38,186 bases of DNA from Promethearchaeota archaeon. Its GTDB lineage: Archaea > Asgardarchaeota > Lokiarchaeia > Sigyniarchaeales > SOKP01. Of this stretch, positions 254-5,545 are shown piece after piece (position 1 is the stretch's first letter; each line of letters begins with the position of its first letter). The stretch spans positions 1 to 38,186 of the forward strand of contig JAEOTH010000204.1 in the NCBI GenBank assembly GCA_016839915.1, given 5' to 3'. The position numbers and the translations under genes were made by a program. The notes under the pieces are model-generated. The model worked only from the letters and a program-made list of their open reading frames with translations, was not told the DNA's origin and did not search any database.

Positions 254-712
254 CTATAATGCAACATAAGAACTGTTTTTGTATTCCTTAAGAATCATAT
301 TTGAATTAGTTCGTGTAATATATTCTTTTTGATTTAGATCTCGAATGAATTTATGAACATCTTCACTCTCTTTAAAGCGGCAGATTAATGCGGCGGATTG
401 TTCTCCAGTTGTATGAAAGATTGAACATACTTCAGGAATTTTTGTAAGATCATTCAAAATTTTTTCAGTAAATTTGCCATCGCAGTTGATTCTTATTAGG
501 AATGTCAATTTATAACCTAATTTTTCATTATTAAGTTTGAGGGTGTATCCCTCAATTACTCCATACTTTTTTAATTTTGAAATTCGATTATGAATAGTTC
601 CTATTGAGATGCCTAATTCATCCTGGATCTCTCTGTAGCTCTCTCTCGCATTTGATTGTAAAATTCTGAGTATGTCTCGATCGATTTCATCGAGAGCTTT
701 TTCTTTCTTCAT
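254..712 (-). CDS. Lrp/AsnC family transcriptional regulator
   Basis: This 152-residue protein has the two-part build of the Lrp/AsnC family. Residues 6-60 form the winged helix-turn-helix (LDEIDRDILRILQSNAR, then the recognition helix ISIGTIHNRISKLKKYGVIEGY). The rest is a RAM/ACT-like effector and oligomerisation domain. Length is normal for the family. Such proteins bind DNA as dimers or octamers and respond to amino acids or related metabolites; the effector cannot be read here. The ATG at 710-712 is the natural start because the HTH begins directly after it. A perfect inverted repeat sits over the predicted transcription start upstream, which suggests autoregulation. The chaperonin gene lies downstream on the same strand but has its own TATA box. 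Confidence 0.9.
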   Translation of the reverse strand: MKKEKALDEIDRDILRILQSNARESYREIQDELGISIGTIHNRISKLKKYGVIEGYTLKLNNEKLGYKLTFLIRINCDGKFTEKILNDLTKIPEVCSIFHTTGEQSAALICRFKESEDVHKFIRDLNQKEYITRTNSNMILKEYKNSSYVAL

Positions 713-912: not shown

Positions 913-2007
913 ATGGTTGATGATTTTAAAATAGACCCTTGGGGGGTTTCTGCTATAGATGATTATGATAGATTAATTAGGGAATTCGGGATTGAGGAAA
1001 TAACAGAATCTCTTAGACAAAAGATGATTAAGAACCGATTTATCAGAAGAAAAATCATCTTCGGTCACCGTGATTTAGGTCTTATTTACAAAGCTATGGA
1101 ACAAGGTCAACCATGGGCCGTCATGTCAGGAATTAAACCTTCAGGACCATTTCACTTAGGAACATCAACTACCGCTCTAGAGATCGTGGAATTCCAGCGA
1201 ATGGGTGGTAAAGTATATTATGGAATTGCAGATATAGAGTCATGGGAGGACAACGGTATACCATGGGAGGAAGCAGAAGAAACTGCTGTAGATAATATTG
1301 CTGACATATTAGCATTCGGATTAGATCCATCTCCAGAAAAAGCATATATTTGGAGACAATCAAAAGAGCCAAAAGTTAAAGATGTTTGTTTTAAGGTGAG
1401 TAGATTAGTAACACAAAACATGCTAAACGCAATATATGGTGAACGTACATTCGGACTCTATATTGCATCACTAATACAAGTAGGAGATATCGTGCTCCCA
1501 CAAGTGGTAGAAGGTCCTCAACCAACTATAGTGCCTGTAGGAATTGATCAAGATCCTCATATTCGGCTTACTAGAGATTTAACCAGAAGAAATTATAAGA
1601 AATTTTTCTTGCCAGGTGCAACATATCATTATTTATTAGCAGGAATAGATGGCTCAGAAAAAATGGCTAAGAGAAACCCTAATAGCTATTTCACATTCAA
1701 TGAACCTCTTGATGCGGTTGAGAAGAAAGTTAAAGGAGCACTAACTGGTGGCAGAAAAAACTTAAAAGAGCAAAAGGAATTAGGTGGTGATCCTCAAAAA
1801 TGCATGGTTTATAAAATGCTAATGTACCATTTTGAGGAAAATGATGAAACATTGAAGAAAGATTTTGAAATGTGCGTCAAAGGTGAATTAATGTGTGGGG
1901 ATCATAAACGAGAATGCGTTGAGAAAGCACTAAAATTTATAAAAAATCACAGAAAGAAAAAGGAAAAACTTATTGACAAGGCTCGAAATCTTCTCAAAAT
2001 AGATTAA
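913..2007 (+). CDS. trpS: Tryptophanyl-tRNA synthetase (archaeal/eukaryotic type)
   Basis: A class I synthetase of 364 residues that charges tRNA-Trp with tryptophan using ATP. The N-terminus has the FKIDPWGV segment typical of archaeal and eukaryotic TrpRS. The HIGH-like signature is SGIKPSGPFHLG at 72-83 and the KMSKS-like loop is EKMAKR at about 249-254. The block PVGIDQDPHIRLTRDL near 208-223 and the C-terminal LTGGRKNLKEQKELGGDPQKC block are diagnostic of TrpRS and separate it from the related TyrRS. Length matches single-domain archaeal enzymes. The ATG at 913 fits the conserved N-terminus. It stands alone, convergent with the Rag-type GTPase gene. Confidence 0.95.
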   Translation: MVDDFKIDPWGVSAIDDYDRLIREFGIEEITESLRQKMIKNRFIRRKIIFGHRDLGLIYKAMEQGQPWAVMSGIKPSGPFHLGTSTTALEIVEFQRMGGKVYYGIADIESWEDNGIPWEEAEETAVDNIADILAFGLDPSPEKAYIWRQSKEPKVKDVCFKVSRLVTQNMLNAIYGERTFGLYIASLIQVGDIVLPQVVEGPQPTIVPVGIDQDPHIRLTRDLTRRNYKKFFLPGATYHYLLAGIDGSEKMAKRNPNSYFTFNEPLDAVEKKVKGALTGGRKNLKEQKELGGDPQKCMVYKMLMYHFEENDETLKKDFEMCVKGELMCGDHKRECVEKALKFIKNHRKKKEKLIDKARNLLKID

Positions 2008-2033: not shown

Positions 2034-2957
2034 TTAGATCAATTGTTCTAAAATTTTAACTAAATCATCAAGAAAATCAGGGAATCTTTCAAAGAATTGT
2101 TCTTTTTGTTCCTCTTTAAGTACTGCTGATACGAAAAACAACTCATCCTTTATTTTCTTTCTTAGTAAATAGGAAAAGAGGATCCCTTCAGTTGTGGTAA
2201 AGTCAAAATTCCCCTCAATTTTTTCTTCTTCCATCCTTTTAAGTAGAAAAAGATGTTCCTTCATTGATTCTAGCAATGACACGTAAACGTCAGGGTCAAT
2301 ATCGTTGTAATATTCAGAAATAATTATCCCATTACGATCAAATATAATTAGTGCTTGGCTGTTAAAAATTTCTAAATAGTATTCCAAAAGTTCTGAAAGC
2401 TCGAAAAATTTCTTATCAAACACGGAAAGCCCGTATGAAACTAATTGAACTATTGAAATTATGTCATATATTGATGATTGCTGAAACAAAATATTAAAAT
2501 CTGGATAATCACTTAATATTTTTTCTCTAAGTTTATCAATATTAGCTAGGATTTTTTCATCAGCCTTCAACTCAGGATCATATTTATGAAATGTTATTAT
2601 TATTGGAACATTCATTTCACTCTCTGAGAAAAAGGTTAAAATCGAGTTTAAATATTCAAGTGAGTTATCGAAGCGATTTGGATCTTGAATATCAATTACA
2701 TAGATAAGTAAATCAGTAGCATCAAAATAAACATCCTGATAGTTAATATAAATATCTCTATATTGCTCTTGGCCACCCATATCCCAGAAAACTGTGTTAT
2801 TTCTCAAAAAATTCATCTTATGATATTCGACTCTAATAGTGGGTTTAAGTTGGACAATATCTTTCTCAAAGTCATATTTTTTATCTAATGCTGTTAAGAT
2901 TGATGTCTTACCTGCTTCATCCAAGCCAGATATAATAATTTTTAGAAAGCTCTCCAT
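2034..2957 (-). CDS. Rag/Gtr-type small GTPase with C-terminal roadblock-like domain
   Basis: A 307-residue protein with a Ras-superfamily G domain (about 1-180) and a C-terminal alpha/beta domain (about 188-307). Visible motifs: P-loop GLDEAGKTS (11-19), switch I threonine in KPT (about 40), switch II WDMGGQEQYR (58-67), and G4 HKYD at 124-127 instead of NKxD. The HKxD form, the GGQ switch II and the SSIYD segment (about 161-165) in place of SAK are hallmarks of eukaryotic Rag/Gtr GTPases. The tail reads like the Rag roadblock domain: helix, then QALIIFDRNGIIISEYY. Eukaryotic Rags form heterodimers that recruit TORC1 to lysosomes in response to amino acids; what the archaeal protein does is unknown. 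A TATA-like box lies near 3005-3014. The roadblock reading is from pattern, not structure. Confidence 0.85.
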   Translation of the reverse strand: MESFLKIIISGLDEAGKTSILTALDKKYDFEKDIVQLKPTIRVEYHKMNFLRNNTVFWDMGGQEQYRDIYINYQDVYFDATDLLIYVIDIQDPNRFDNSLEYLNSILTFFSESEMNVPIIITFHKYDPELKADEKILANIDKLREKILSDYPDFNILFQQSSIYDIISIVQLVSYGLSVFDKKFFELSELLEYYLEIFNSQALIIFDRNGIIISEYYNDIDPDVYVSLLESMKEHLFLLKRMEEEKIEGNFDFTTTEGILFSYLLRKKIKDELFFVSAVLKEEQKEQFFERFPDFLDDLVKILEQLI

Positions 2958-3256
2958 CTATTTTCAACTTTTAATTATTAATGAATTTAATAAAATAATA
3001 GACTCATATAAATTTAAACTTCTGTGAAAGTAAAAGAGAGTTTTTAAATTTTAAGTTTATAGCTATAGGGCGTATTGATTGTTATAATATCAAGATCTCA
3101 TCTATATATTATTCCTATGTTTTTAATTTCAATTTTTTGAGAGGATTTACAATAAACGCAGTGATTATAGAGTAATTTAGATGACATTTATATGATATTT
3201 ATATTTTTTAAAGCAGATGAACTGATTTTACTCAATGATTTAATTCATAAAAGAGG
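2958..3256. other. Divergent intergenic region (299 bases)
   Basis: Very AT-rich, with no tRNA or other RNA gene that I can recognise. It holds a probable minus-strand TATA box for the Rag-type GTPase (about 3005-3014) and TATA-like stretches near 3185-3206 that could serve the small gene at 3257. An AAGAGG purine stretch sits directly against the ATG at 3257. Confidence 0.4.
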
Positions 3257-3496
3257 ATGATGTATTTGATAGAATTAGATAATAAATTTTTGAAAAATTT
3301 AGAGTATCAGATCAGTTTAAAAGAAAACACATATAAAACGCTTAAAAAAATACCTGTGTTTACGGAACAAGTTAAGCAATTTGATAGTTCAGTCTCAGAA
3401 CTCACAAATAAATTTGAAAGAATTAGGCTTCGAGACAAATATCAGATAATTATAACAGAACTAGATAATCTAATAAAAAACGCTAAACCAAAATAA
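3257..3496 (+). CDS. Small helical protein of unknown function (79 aa)
   Basis: I do not recognise this protein. It is 79 residues long, charged, without cysteines or membrane segments, and looks mostly alpha-helical with heptad-like hydrophobic spacing across two segments (about 8-40 and 45-77). Two ATG codons lie in tandem (3257 and 3260). The AAGAGG stretch directly before them is too close for the first but slightly better for the second, so the start is uncertain. A run of nine T residues follows the stop, as expected for an archaeal terminator. Its position between a Rag-type GTPase and a pseudo-GTPase operon makes a link possible, but nothing in the sequence shows one. Confidence 0.6.
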   Translation: MMYLIELDNKFLKNLEYQISLKENTYKTLKKIPVFTEQVKQFDSSVSELTNKFERIRLRDKYQIIITELDNLIKNAKPK

Positions 3497-3507
3497 ATAT
3501 TACTTTA

Positions 3508-3516
3508 TTTTTTTTT
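3508..3516 (+). terminator. T-tract terminator after the 79-aa gene
   Basis: Nine consecutive T residues begin 11 bases after the stop of the small gene. Archaeal termination commonly uses such oligo-T tracts without a hairpin. Confidence 0.45.
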
Positions 3517-3531
3517 AATAATCTGAAATTC

Positions 3532-3954
3532 TTAATCACCGACAATCATACAGTAGATTTTTCTTGATCTCGCTTTTTCATCACATTCGATGAAAATTAT
3601 TTGCTGCCAAGTACCTAAAATTAACTTTTGATTTTTAAATGGGAAAGATTGAGAGGTTTTGATTAGGAAACTTCTTAAATGTCCAGCTCCGTTATAATCA
3701 TGCCACGTCTTATGATGTGCATAATCTTCTTTATATGGAATTAATTTTTCCAATAGCTCTTTAATATCATGTTTCACGAGCCCTGGTTCATATTCTACGG
3801 TTGAAATTGCACCTGTCGATCCGGCAACATGAACGTTCACAATTCCGTTGTTGACATTACTATTGTTAATACACTTTTGAACTTGTTGTGTAATATCAAT
3901 GATGTCACAATAAGCTTTAGTTCTTAACTCAAAAGTTTTTAATATTGCCGTCAT
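3532..3954 (-). CDS. YjbQ / UPF0047 family protein
   Basis: A 140-residue protein that fits the YjbQ (UPF0047) family at full length. Visible family features are VHVAGSTGAISTVEYEPG in the first half, the histidine-rich YAHHKTWHDYNGAGHLRS segment in the middle, and LGTWQQIIFIECD near the end, where LGTWQ is strongly conserved. Family members are small trimeric proteins; a weak thiamin phosphate synthase activity has been reported for some bacterial ones, but the true role is not settled. The ATG lies 3 bases after the TGA of the upstream pseudo-GTPase gene, so the two are almost certainly cotranscribed and perhaps translationally coupled. Confidence 0.9.
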   Translation of the reverse strand: MTAILKTFELRTKAYCDIIDITQQVQKCINNSNVNNGIVNVHVAGSTGAISTVEYEPGLVKHDIKELLEKLIPYKEDYAHHKTWHDYNGAGHLRSFLIKTSQSFPFKNQKLILGTWQQIIFIECDEKARSRKIYCMIVGD

Positions 3955-3957
3955 TTT

Positions 3958-5001
3958 TCATTTTATACCTTTTTCACATATATTAATGTTGAATATTTGT
4001 TTTAAGACAGATCGTGGCAAGTTATTTTCATTTCCTTCTATTAAAGCAAGGATTTTACTTAAGATAAGAATCTCATTTTGTTCAAAGCCTTGAATATTTG
4101 TCCACCCTATTGACTTTTCTGCTTCAATACAAATGAAGAATGGTGCTCTTTTATATTTCAAGCATGTTATATCCTTACATTTCTCACATACTTTAGGGTA
4201 ATAATAAACGTTACCATTTTTAAGATAAATTGAAAAAATACCGAGTTTTTTATTTATAAACTTAAGCCAATTATCAGATTCAAGGTAACAATTCAGATTT
4301 AATTTCAAAATATACTTAACCAATTGTTCTGTGTTTATAGTTTTACTGATATTTACATTACGAGTTTCAGGTTCATAATAGTCATGACATTCATCAGTTA
4401 TGTCTGAACGAACGAAAAGTAGATCTAAAGGAATAAAGTTAATGAAATAAGAATTTTCTAACTCTTTAGATTTATTTCTTTTTAAAGAAATTGAACAAAT
4501 TTGATTTAAAATTTCTGAGCTTTCAAATATCTCAGCAATTTGGATGTTGTTTGCTTTTATTATTGACTCAAACTCATCAATCTTGAAATATTTATGAACA
4601 ATCTCATCTATAGTATATTCCTCGAGGATTATACAAAATACAATGGTTATCGATGAAATTCTATCTTGGATTTCATTAAAATATTGTAGAAATTGATCCA
4701 CCTTTGTTTCCGATATAAAGATAATTATAGCTTCAGCACCATTATAAAAAATAGTACGTAAATAAGCTCTTGGTTGCCTACAATCAATATTCCATAAAAG
4801 AAATTCAAATTTTTCATTCTCTTTAAATAAATAATCAATCTTACTTATGTTTACTCCAATATTACGCTTATTTTCGATTGAGAGGCTATTTGAACTTAAT
4901 TCTATTTGAAATTCATCCTTATAATTTTCTTGGCCACCAAGGACACAGATTTTCTTTTTTAAAACGTATTTTTCCTGAAGAGGAGATTCTAAAAAGCTCA
5001 T
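3958..5001 (-). CDS. Degenerate small-GTPase-like protein with cysteine-containing C-terminal domain
   Basis: 347 residues. The first 170 or so keep the outline of a Rab-like G domain but lack the catalytic motifs. KKICVLGGQENYKDEF sits where the P-loop should be, without GK[ST]. RNIGVNISKID mirrors switch I. LLWNIDCRQPRAYLR followed by the strand AEAIIIFIS mirrors the WDTAGQERFR switch II and next strand. No NKxD is visible. It should therefore not bind GTP normally, if the fold reading is right. Residues 190-347 are an unrecognised domain with a CEKC-x4-C cluster near 270 that may bind metal. A purine-rich GGAAGG stretch precedes the ATG by about five bases. It is the first gene of a pair with YjbQ. 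The fold assignment is inference from spacing of motifs. Confidence 0.65.
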   Translation of the reverse strand: MSFLESPLQEKYVLKKKICVLGGQENYKDEFQIELSSNSLSIENKRNIGVNISKIDYLFKENEKFEFLLWNIDCRQPRAYLRTIFYNGAEAIIIFISETKVDQFLQYFNEIQDRISSITIVFCIILEEYTIDEIVHKYFKIDEFESIIKANNIQIAEIFESSEILNQICSISLKRNKSKELENSYFINFIPLDLLFVRSDITDECHDYYEPETRNVNISKTINTEQLVKYILKLNLNCYLESDNWLKFINKKLGIFSIYLKNGNVYYYPKVCEKCKDITCLKYKRAPFFICIEAEKSIGWTNIQGFEQNEILILSKILALIEGNENNLPRSVLKQIFNINICEKGIK

Positions 5002-5119: not shown

Positions 5120-5545
5120 ATGAGTTCTAAAAGGCTTGAAAATTTCTTGAACAAAATCCACAATAAAAAAAATAAGATTCCAGAATATGCTACAATAATT
5201 ATTCGCCCTGGAAAGAAACTTCTTGATTTCAAAATTAAAAAGGAGGAAGCTAATATCTTAAAAGTGATTGCCCATGATCAAAAATCATCTGGATGGTTTC
5301 TACACTCTGTCCATATCCCTTTAAAAAATTTAGGTTTATCTTATGAATCCAAAGATAAAGAAATATTAGATTATTTATCTCAACCAAATAGAATTACAAG
5401 TAGTAAACCTACAAAACAGTATATTGAAGATTTATTAAGGAAGTACGTTGACATATTACCAGAAAAAAAGAAACATTTCTTTAAAACTGAACGGTTTAAA
5501 AAAAAGAAAGAGTTCAAAACTGGTGCTCAATTGAAAGGATTTTAA
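5120..5545 (+). CDS. Basic protein of unknown function (141 aa)
   Basis: I do not recognise this gene. The protein is strongly basic, especially at both ends (RLENFLNKIHNKKNK and a lysine-rich tail from about 115). It has no cysteines, signal peptide or membrane segment. The middle (about 20-60) looks like alternating strands and helices, with YATIIIRPGKKLLDF and SGWFLHSVHIPLKNLG. The charge would suit nucleic-acid binding, but that is a guess. Its TAA stop abuts the stop of the tRNA-binding gene on the other strand with no base between, so the two genes are exactly back to back. Confidence 0.6.
   Translation: MSSKRLENFLNKIHNKKNKIPEYATIIIRPGKKLLDFKIKKEEANILKVIAHDQKSSGWFLHSVHIPLKNLGLSYESKDKEILDYLSQPNRITSSKPTKQYIEDLLRKYVDILPEKKKHFFKTERFKKKKEFKTGAQLKGF

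What the first reader, a model, noticed from the sequence alone, without database searches (positions are those of the whole stretch)
2034..2957. An archaeal Rag/Gtr GTPase with the complete eukaryotic domain layout
The G4 motif is HKYD, not NKxD; switch II is WDMGGQEQYR; a SSIYD segment stands in for SAK; and a roadblock-like domain follows. This combination marks eukaryotic Rag/Gtr GTPases, the amino-acid branch of TORC1 signalling, so the gene bears on the origin of that pathway. Seen: motifs and order. Known: Rag GTPases carry HKxD and a roadblock tail. Inferred: common ancestry and possible heterodimer formation.
Basis: partly seen in the sequence, partly recalled or inferred. Interest (0 to 1): 0.8.

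Follow-up and report, generated by a model that had tools for sequence, protein, structure and literature searches.

The report
Lokiarchaeal Rag-like GTPase, roadblock tail
This gene of an Asgard archaeon makes a molecular switch related to the Rag proteins that report amino acids in our cells, but it is one of about a dozen such genes in its genome, sits on an archaeal side branch rather than next to ours, and its kind was already known.

Summary
ORF 2034-2957 (-) of a Lokiarchaeia genome encodes 307 aa with the stated motifs and a C-terminal domain predicted as a roadblock fold. Arf (78.9 bits) and Gtr1_RagA (72.7 bits) profiles both match. A 77-row G-domain tree puts it with Asgard and eukaryotic Rags, apart from Arf/Ras (99/97). 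It shares the long switch II of Rags (31 residues; 27 in Arf/Ras) and HKxD. The first 41 Foldseek hits in PDB are chains of Rag/Gtr entries, led by LokiRagO (8yl2), a solved lokiarchaeal RagA-like homotetramer.

The larger inference is weaker. Within the Rags it lies in a lokiarchaeal branch with LokiRagO; a clade with eukaryotic RagA/Gtr1 is rejected (AU p 4e-7). Thirteen Rag-branch genes of this genome are in the tree, and another one (contig C39) is the Gtr1-like one (5e-26). An Arf-ward placement of the branch is not formally excluded (p 0.145). Orthologues: 21 of 23 sampled genomes of one family, 0 of 96 others. Most likely a GTP/GDP switch that self-associates through its roadblock domain; pathway unknown. 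Rag-like roadblock-fused lokiarchaeal GTPases are in print since 2016: a new member of a known kind.

The parts
2034..2957 (-). Rag-like GTPase gene, 307 aa
   Evidence: Open frame; Gtr1_RagA 72.7 bits and Arf 78.9 bits; 14 orthologous loci
2901..2927 (-). G1 P-loop GLDEAGKTS, residues 11-19
   Evidence: G11, K17, T18, S19 invariant in 15 rows
2691..2783 (-). G3 and switch II to the end of the next strand, residues 59-89 (31 residues, Rag-type length)
   Evidence: Lengths compared over 81 G domains
2577..2588 (-). G4 HKYD, residues 124-127
   Evidence: H124, K125, D127 invariant in 15 rows
2463..2477 (-). G5 region SSIYD, residues 161-165
   Evidence: S162-D165 invariant in 15 rows; TSI[WY]D in Gtr1, RagA and RagC
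2040..2414 (-). Predicted roadblock domain, residues 182-306
   Evidence: AlphaFold2 model; Foldseek matches to Rag/Gtr entries over both domains
3006..3018 (-). TATA-like stretch TTTAAATTTATAT about 50 bases before the start codon; possible own promoter (weak)
   Evidence: Sequence; similar, not identical, in most of 11 upstream regions, L009 departs
913..2007 (+). Tryptophanyl-tRNA synthetase, tail to tail with the GTPase gene
   Evidence: trpS over its cut-off; opposite strand downstream in 25 of 26 loci with downstream sequence
254..712 (-). Lrp/AsnC-type regulator
   Evidence: Pfam; nearby in 19 of 27 distinct loci
3532..3954 (-). UPF0047/YjbQ protein, upstream neighbour
   Evidence: Pfam and NCBIfam; upstream in 23 of 25 loci with at least 1.1 kb upstream
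3958..5001 (-). Pseudo-GTPase-like protein: Rab-like G fold predicted, no P-loop; a neighbour, not an obligate partner
   Evidence: found in 11 of 27 distinct loci

Best explanation
The gene encodes a lokiarchaeal Rag-like GTPase: a Rag-type G domain followed by a roadblock domain, a paralogue in the lokiarchaeal branch of the Asgard Rag family to which the solved LokiRagO belongs. It most likely works as a GTP/GDP switch that pairs with itself through the C-terminal roadblock domain; the GTP state would expose a surface for an effector, and separate roadblock or longin proteins may act as exchange or GTPase-activating factors. Shown here: the reading frame, the conserved nucleotide-binding and switch residues, the tree position, the predicted fold. 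Inferred: GTP hydrolysis, self-association (by analogy with LokiRagO), regulators. Unknown: effector and signal.
For: Gtr1_RagA over cut-off. Invariant G1-G5 residues in 15 orthologues. Rag-type switch II length and HKxD. Tree: Rags against Arf/Ras 99/97, window gene with LokiRagO and LokiRagM in a 25-row branch 94/91; the Rag split stays at 98/91 without the motif columns. Best PDB matches are LokiRagO 1.8e-32 and LokiRagM 1.7e-19 (4.4e-42 and 3.6e-25 with the profile). Foldseek ranks 1-41 are chains of Rag/Gtr entries. Own-genome C-terminal domain of L003 plus LokiRagO matches this one, P 2.8e-5, best of 51 decoys 0.0044. Homotetramer in the title of 8yl2.
Against: Arf profile scores higher than Gtr1_RagA, and with the orthologue profile Arf1 (1.9e-14) and RagA (3e-14) are level. 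AU does not reject the whole branch with Arf (p 0.145) or the orthologues with Arf and Ras (p 0.196). Without motif columns and six long rows the branch falls to 84/59 and loses two members. No Pfam roadblock, and profile comparison with Pfam-recognised roadblock proteins of the genome is at decoy level (P 0.0047). LokiRagM, in the same branch, is monomeric by its PDB title, so self-association is not a property of the whole branch. Model confidence is moderate.
Confidence: 0.72

Rival explanations
1. It is an Arf-branch (ArfR-like) GTPase that gained a roadblock tail; the Rag likeness is convergent.
For: Arf profile 78.9 against Gtr1_RagA 72.7 bits; Arl3 2.6e-13 ahead of RagA 5.1e-11 among eukaryotic PDB chains; AU does not reject the branch with Arf, p 0.145.
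Against: Tree split 99/97, 98/91 without the motif columns; orthologues with Arf alone p 0.045. HKxD and long switch II, none of the 24 rows with the 27-residue switch II has HKxD. Strand 1 starts at residue 4, so there is no room for the N-terminal helix said to mark Arf and ArfR.
Confidence: 0.12
2. It is the archaeal orthologue of eukaryotic RagA/Gtr1 and so bears directly on the origin of TORC1 signalling.
For: Shared HKxD, long switch II, SSIYD and roadblock-type tail.
Against: Clade with RagA/Gtr1 rejected, p 4.1e-7; with RagC added p 1.8e-4. Contig C39 of the same genome matches yeast Gtr1 at 5e-26 over residues 96-382 and has a Pfam-recognised roadblock, while this protein reaches Gtr1 at 3.7e-10. 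Orthologues in 21 of 23 sampled genomes of one family, 0 of 96 others.
Confidence: 0.02
3. It is a Rag-like GTPase that works as a heterodimer with another Rag-branch protein of the genome, as RagA does with RagC.
For: 13 Rag-side rows from this genome; a tandem second copy in L011; an operon pair of MK-D1 modelled as a heterodimer in print (PMC10933270, passage).
Against: No Rag-like gene beside it in the window; the tandem copy was seen in 1 of the 14 loci; LokiRagO is a homotetramer by title. Not testable here: the structure tool takes single chains.
Confidence: 0.14

Closest known systems
LokiRagO, RagA-like GTPase of Lokiarchaeota, PDB 8yl2 (released 2025-09-10)
   Same: Best PDB match by sequence (1.8e-32) and by Foldseek (ranks 1-3); same branch of the tree; HKFD, 31-residue switch II, TTIYD
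   Different: About 25% identity in the structural alignment; its closer relative in this genome is L003 (100/100); oligomeric state of the window protein unknown
LokiRagM, monomeric Rag-like GTPase of Lokiarchaeota, PDB 8zla and 9m28
   Same: Same branch of the tree, HKxD and 31-residue switch II
   Different: Long end branch, 20% identity in the structural alignment, monomeric by title
Eukaryotic RagA/Gtr1 and RagC
   Same: Layout G domain plus roadblock-type domain, HKxD, long switch II, TSI[WY]D
   Different: Other branch of the tree; common clade rejected; no sequence likeness of the C-terminal domains (P 0.31 and 0.48)
Rag-like GTPase-RB proteins of MK-D1 and Lokiarchaeum in print (PMC10933270 of 2024; PMC4917890 of 2016; passages)
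   Same: GTPase fused to a roadblock domain, switch II insert, often annotated as Arf by sequence; roadblock fused to Rag-like GTPases
   Different: Whether this very orthologue is among their proteins could not be checked; their supplements are not available here
Arf, Arl3 and Asgard ArfR
   Same: Related G domain, GLDxAGKT P-loop, GGQ
   Different: 27-residue switch II, NKxD, N-terminal helix

Membership tests
Rag/Gtr family in the wide sense (Asgard and eukaryotic) | Gtr1_RagA profile over its cut-off | tested here: met
   72.7 bits, cut-off 22; but the Arf profile scores 78.9, and many Rab-like proteins of the genome also pass
Rag/Gtr family in the wide sense (Asgard and eukaryotic) | HKxD in G4 | tested here: met
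   Invariant in 15 rows; 50 of 55 long-switch rows against 0 of 24 short-switch rows
Rag/Gtr family in the wide sense (Asgard and eukaryotic) | Extended switch II | tested here: met
   31 residues; RagA and Gtr1 32, RagC 30, Arl3 27
Rag/Gtr family in the wide sense (Asgard and eukaryotic) | Tree grouping with Rags and not with Arf/Ras | tested here: inconclusive
   Support 99/97 and 98/91, but AU does not reject Arf-ward alternatives, p 0.145 and 0.196
Rag/Gtr family in the wide sense (Asgard and eukaryotic) | C-terminal roadblock domain | tested here: met
   Predicted fold and Foldseek; sequence profiles do not show it
Rag/Gtr family in the wide sense (Asgard and eukaryotic) | Dimer through the roadblock domains | not testable with these tools
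   Only single chains can be predicted
Eukaryotic RagA/Gtr1 or RagC/Gtr2 orthologue | Common clade with the eukaryotic proteins | tested here: not met
   AU p 4.1e-7 and 1.8e-4
Eukaryotic RagA/Gtr1 or RagC/Gtr2 orthologue | Acts on TORC1 through Raptor, with Ragulator | not testable with these tools
   Raptor_N 0 of 119 genomes but no control rang; FAT 20 of 119, partial and weak, none in the own genome; NPR2 2 of 119, both under the cut-off
Arf / Asgard ArfR | NKxD and 27-residue switch II | tested here: not met
   HKYD and 31 residues
Arf / Asgard ArfR | N-terminal amphipathic helix before the G domain | tested here: not met
   Strand 1 begins at residue 4; the feature is taken from a passage of PMC12554972
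MglA | Groups with bacterial MglA | not tested
   No named MglA reference was put in the tree; no MglA among the 60 PDB rows shown or the 50 shown

The most novel reading that the evidence does not exclude
The Asgard Rag family had split into two deep branches before eukaryotes arose. One led to eukaryotic Rags and TORC1; this lokiarchaeal one has a nutrient-signal role of its own, reflected in its lasting linkage to the genome's tryptophanyl-tRNA synthetase and an Lrp/AsnC regulator, so that amino-acid sensing by Rags would predate TORC1.
Probability: 0.08. Interest if true: 0.75.

Novelty: new member of a known kind. Interest (0 to 1): 0.27.

Why it matters
Rag GTPases carry the amino-acid branch of TORC1 signalling, and their Asgard relatives are the place to look for its origin. 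The specific result here is that, in this genome, the gene to study for that origin is the one on contig C39 (L001) and not the window gene, which belongs to a lokiarchaeal side branch. Its conserved place beside TrpRS and an Lrp-type regulator gives a cheap, testable hint about what such side-branch switches might sense, though conserved order alone can also mean slow rearrangement.

Tried and rejected
Pseudo-GTPase 3958-5001 as the partner: its N-terminal half has a predicted Rab-like G fold without a P-loop, but it was not found in 12 loci with 3.9 kb or more of upstream sequence, so it is not an obligate partner.

One operon with the upstream genes: thought unlikely; a 574-base gap and a TATA-like stretch before the gene. 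This is weak evidence.

Sequence proof of the roadblock: comparison with eukaryotic Rag tails and with ten Pfam-recognised roadblock proteins of the genome gave nothing beyond the best of 51 decoys (P 0.0044). Matches better than the decoys: C-terminal domain of LokiRagO plus L003 (P 2.8e-5), of L005 (P 1.8e-4), and N-terminal domains of two own GTPases (P 4e-4), which Pfam does not recognise as roadblock. The first run of this comparison used a wrong alignment switch and was redone.

TORC1 parts: Raptor_N, FAT, NPR2 gave nothing usable; for Raptor_N no control rang either, so absence is not shown.

Special TrpRS: dropped; it is the only match over the trpS cut-off in the genome.

Rows left out: one search reduced 112 matching frames to 93 distinct ones. 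From these plus 8 references (101), 81 were aligned, after dropping 11 close orthologues (L010, L012-L017, L020, L021, L067, L068), 3 near-copies of C39 (L070-L072), 2 contig-edge fragments (L025 at 3, L027) and 4 weak GTPases. One search used 77 (also without L092 at 2428, L089 at 1150, L091 at 1168, L043); one search used 71 (also without L008, L096, LokiRagM, L032, L088 at 3, L004). The census used the 81. Asgard rows from outside the window's class were chosen by best Gtr1_RagA score, so the sampling of weaker paralogues there is thin.

Papers: PMC10933270, part 1 of 6 of the text plus passages; PMC4917890 and PMC12554972, passages; others as search listings only. Vargova et al. 2025 is known to me here only through PMC12554972. 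Zhu et al. 2025 (PMC11914678) is not held. No held paper contains LokiRag or the three PDB codes. Organism names of the two Arl3 references in the tree are recalled.

Full report
What is there. The window is G000 contig C184, and the 14 orthologous loci found all come from records titled Lokiarchaeia or Lokiarchaeota. ORF 2034-2957 on the - strand encodes 307 residues. It looks like a working GTPase.

Family by profile. Pfam gives Arf 78.9 bits and Gtr1_RagA 72.7 bits, both far over their cut-offs. Gtr1_RagA also passes many Rab-like proteins here: 58 matches at E up to 1 in this genome, the window gene 12th and a gene on contig C39 first with 143.9 bits; 10 of 14 control genomes have some match, 2 of 14 over the cut-off. 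Profile scores alone do not decide between Arf and Rag.

Family by traits. On 81 aligned G domains the stretch from the Asp of G3 to the Asp after the next strand is 30-33 residues in one class and 27 in the other (two rows have 23). The window protein has 31, RagA and Gtr1 32, RagC 30, both Arl3 27. G4 follows the same line: of 55 rows with 30 or more residues 50 have His, 3 Asn, 2 Ser; of 24 rows with 27 residues none has His (18 Asn, 4 Ser, 2 Thr); the two rows with 23 have His. Related rows are not independent, so this is agreement of two traits, not a probability. A switch II insert in GTPase-RB proteins is already in print (PMC10933270, passage).

Family by tree. A 77-row maximum-likelihood tree sets 54 Asgard and eukaryotic Rag rows against 23 Arf and Ras-like rows with support 99/97. 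The Rags fall into a branch of 25 rows with the window gene, LokiRagO and LokiRagM (94/91; apart from the two PDB entries its rows are from the window's genome or family, from records titled Lokiarchaeia or Lokiarchaeota, or, for L090, from another family of its class), and a branch of 29 rows with eukaryotic RagA/Gtr1 and RagC, C39 of this genome and Rags of other Asgard groups (97/84). Without the motif columns and six long rows the split from Arf/Ras is 98/91 and the branch with eukaryotic Rags 99/97, but the lokiarchaeal branch drops to 84/59 and L023 and L026 leave it. AU tests: orthologues plus RagA/Gtr1 as one clade rejected, p 4.1e-7; plus RagC, p 1.8e-4; orthologues plus Arf and Ras not rejected, p 0.196; orthologues plus Arf p 0.045; the whole lokiarchaeal branch plus Arf not rejected, p 0.145. 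So it is not an orthologue of eukaryotic RagA, and its place among the Rags is well supported but not proven. L007 and RagC are long rows whose places are unsure.

C-terminal domain. AlphaFold2 on the 15-row alignment gives mean pLDDT 72.5 and pTM 0.61; residues 182-306 follow the roadblock order. Foldseek against PDB ranks three chains of 8yl2 first; ranks 4-41 are chains of Rag/Gtr entries (for large complexes judged by entry title) and the two LokiRagM entries; rank 42 is chain G of 9edt, called Cin4. TM-scores of ranks 1-41 are modest, 0.34-0.55 by query length. Sequence evidence is weak: no Pfam roadblock; hhalign P 0.0047 against ten roadblock proteins of the genome, in register around strands 1-2 and helix 2, no better than the best of 51 decoys, 0.0044.

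Nearest known proteins. phmmer against PDB: 8yl2_A 1.8e-32, 8zla_A 1.7e-19, then Arl3 2.6e-13, RagA 5.1e-11, Gtr1 3.7e-10; with the orthologue profile 8yl2 4.4e-42, 8zla 3.6e-25, then Arf1 1.9e-14 and RagA 3e-14, level with each other. The PDB titles call 8yl2 a homotetrameric RagA-like GTPase of Lokiarchaeota (LokiRagO) with GTP, and 8zla/9m28 a monomeric Rag-like one (LokiRagM). In this genome L003 is the LokiRagO relative (100/100). By contrast C39 matches yeast Gtr1 at 5e-26 over its residues 96-382 and Arl3 only at 1.9e-9, and has a Pfam-recognised roadblock. Thirteen Rag-side rows of the tree are from this genome, the window gene included; fragments at contig ends were left out, so the true number may differ.

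Distribution. With the orthologue profile, matches of 285 bits or more occur in 21 of the 23 sampled genomes of the window's family and in none of the other 96 of 119; apart from a second fragment in G064 (219 bits) the next matches are at 201 bits or less, which I take for paralogues. All 27 genomes with any match at E up to 1e-40 are of the window's class. PF04670 at E up to 1e-20 occurs in 57 of 119 genomes of the phylum and in 0 of 14 control genomes.

Surroundings. There are 574 bases between this gene and UPF0047, with a TATA-like stretch about 50 bases before the start that is similar in most of 11 aligned upstream regions. TrpRS lies downstream on the opposite strand in 25 of 26 loci with downstream sequence, within 250 bases in 20 of 26; in L100 a 33% identical protein stands there on the same strand. 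UPF0047 lies upstream in 23 of 25 with at least 1.1 kb upstream, the Lrp relative nearby in 19 of 27, the pseudo-GTPase in 11 of 27. Conserved neighbours can mean function or slow rearrangement; the region as a whole is conserved.

How it probably works. From the invariant switch residues it should bind and hydrolyse GTP; from the roadblock-type tail and LokiRagO it should self-associate; what it signals is unknown. Searches for TORC1 parts gave nothing usable in this genome, but the Raptor_N control was silent, so absence is not shown.

Known or new. PMC4917890 (2016, passages) reports lokiarchaeal GTPases with homology to Rags, and roadblock domains fused to Rag-like GTPases. PMC10933270 (2024, part of the text and passages) describes Rag-like proteins of MK-D1, notes that many had been annotated as Arf, reports the switch II insert in GTPase-RB proteins, and models an operon pair as a heterodimer and others as homodimers. 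The window gene is a further member of that kind.

Noticed in passing
window 3958-5001 (-): A 347-aa protein whose N-terminal half is predicted as a Rab-like G domain (Foldseek best 1.8e-6) but whose P-loop is lost in all 11 aligned orthologues; the C-terminal part has conserved cysteines. All 11 match the Roc profile weakly.
   Followed up: partly
L001 1231-2430 (-), contig C39 of the genome: The most Gtr1-like GTPase of this genome (yeast Gtr1 5e-26). The gene before it, 2427-3599 (-), 390 aa, overlaps it by 4 bases and has no Pfam match.
   Followed up: partly
L002 and L003, contig C115, and similar pairs in at least ten other genomes of the listing: Same-strand pairs of a shorter (about 315-340 aa) and a longer (about 475-505 aa) Rag-like gene, 4-6 kb apart; candidates for cooperating Rag pairs.
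   Followed up: no
L011 3603-4532 and 5001-5924: Two tandem copies of the window gene (62% and 85% identical to it) head to tail; the pseudo-GTPase was not found at this locus.
   Followed up: partly
L007 1489-2403 (contig C92) and L092 1072-2412: Rag-like proteins with an odd G3 (DSPGQ, DSSGQ) that fall near RagC in the tree; long branches, so possibly an artefact, possibly a RagC-type line in archaea.
   Followed up: no
window 913-2007 (+): The genome's only TrpRS over the trpS cut-off reads HLGT and KMAKR where I recall the class I motifs HIGH and KMSKS.
   Followed up: no
window 5120-5545 (+): A 141-aa protein without a Pfam family at E up to 1 that is kept beside this gene group in most loci with enough upstream sequence.
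   Followed up: no
L038 end (contig C99) and L027 start (contig C163); L025 at 3-359 (contig C17) and L003 (contig C115): One Rag-like gene appears cut across two contig ends that share some 40 residues, and a near-copy of L003 lies at another contig edge: assembly breaks or strain mixture (contamination 6.89%), so the paralogue count is approximate.
   Followed up: no
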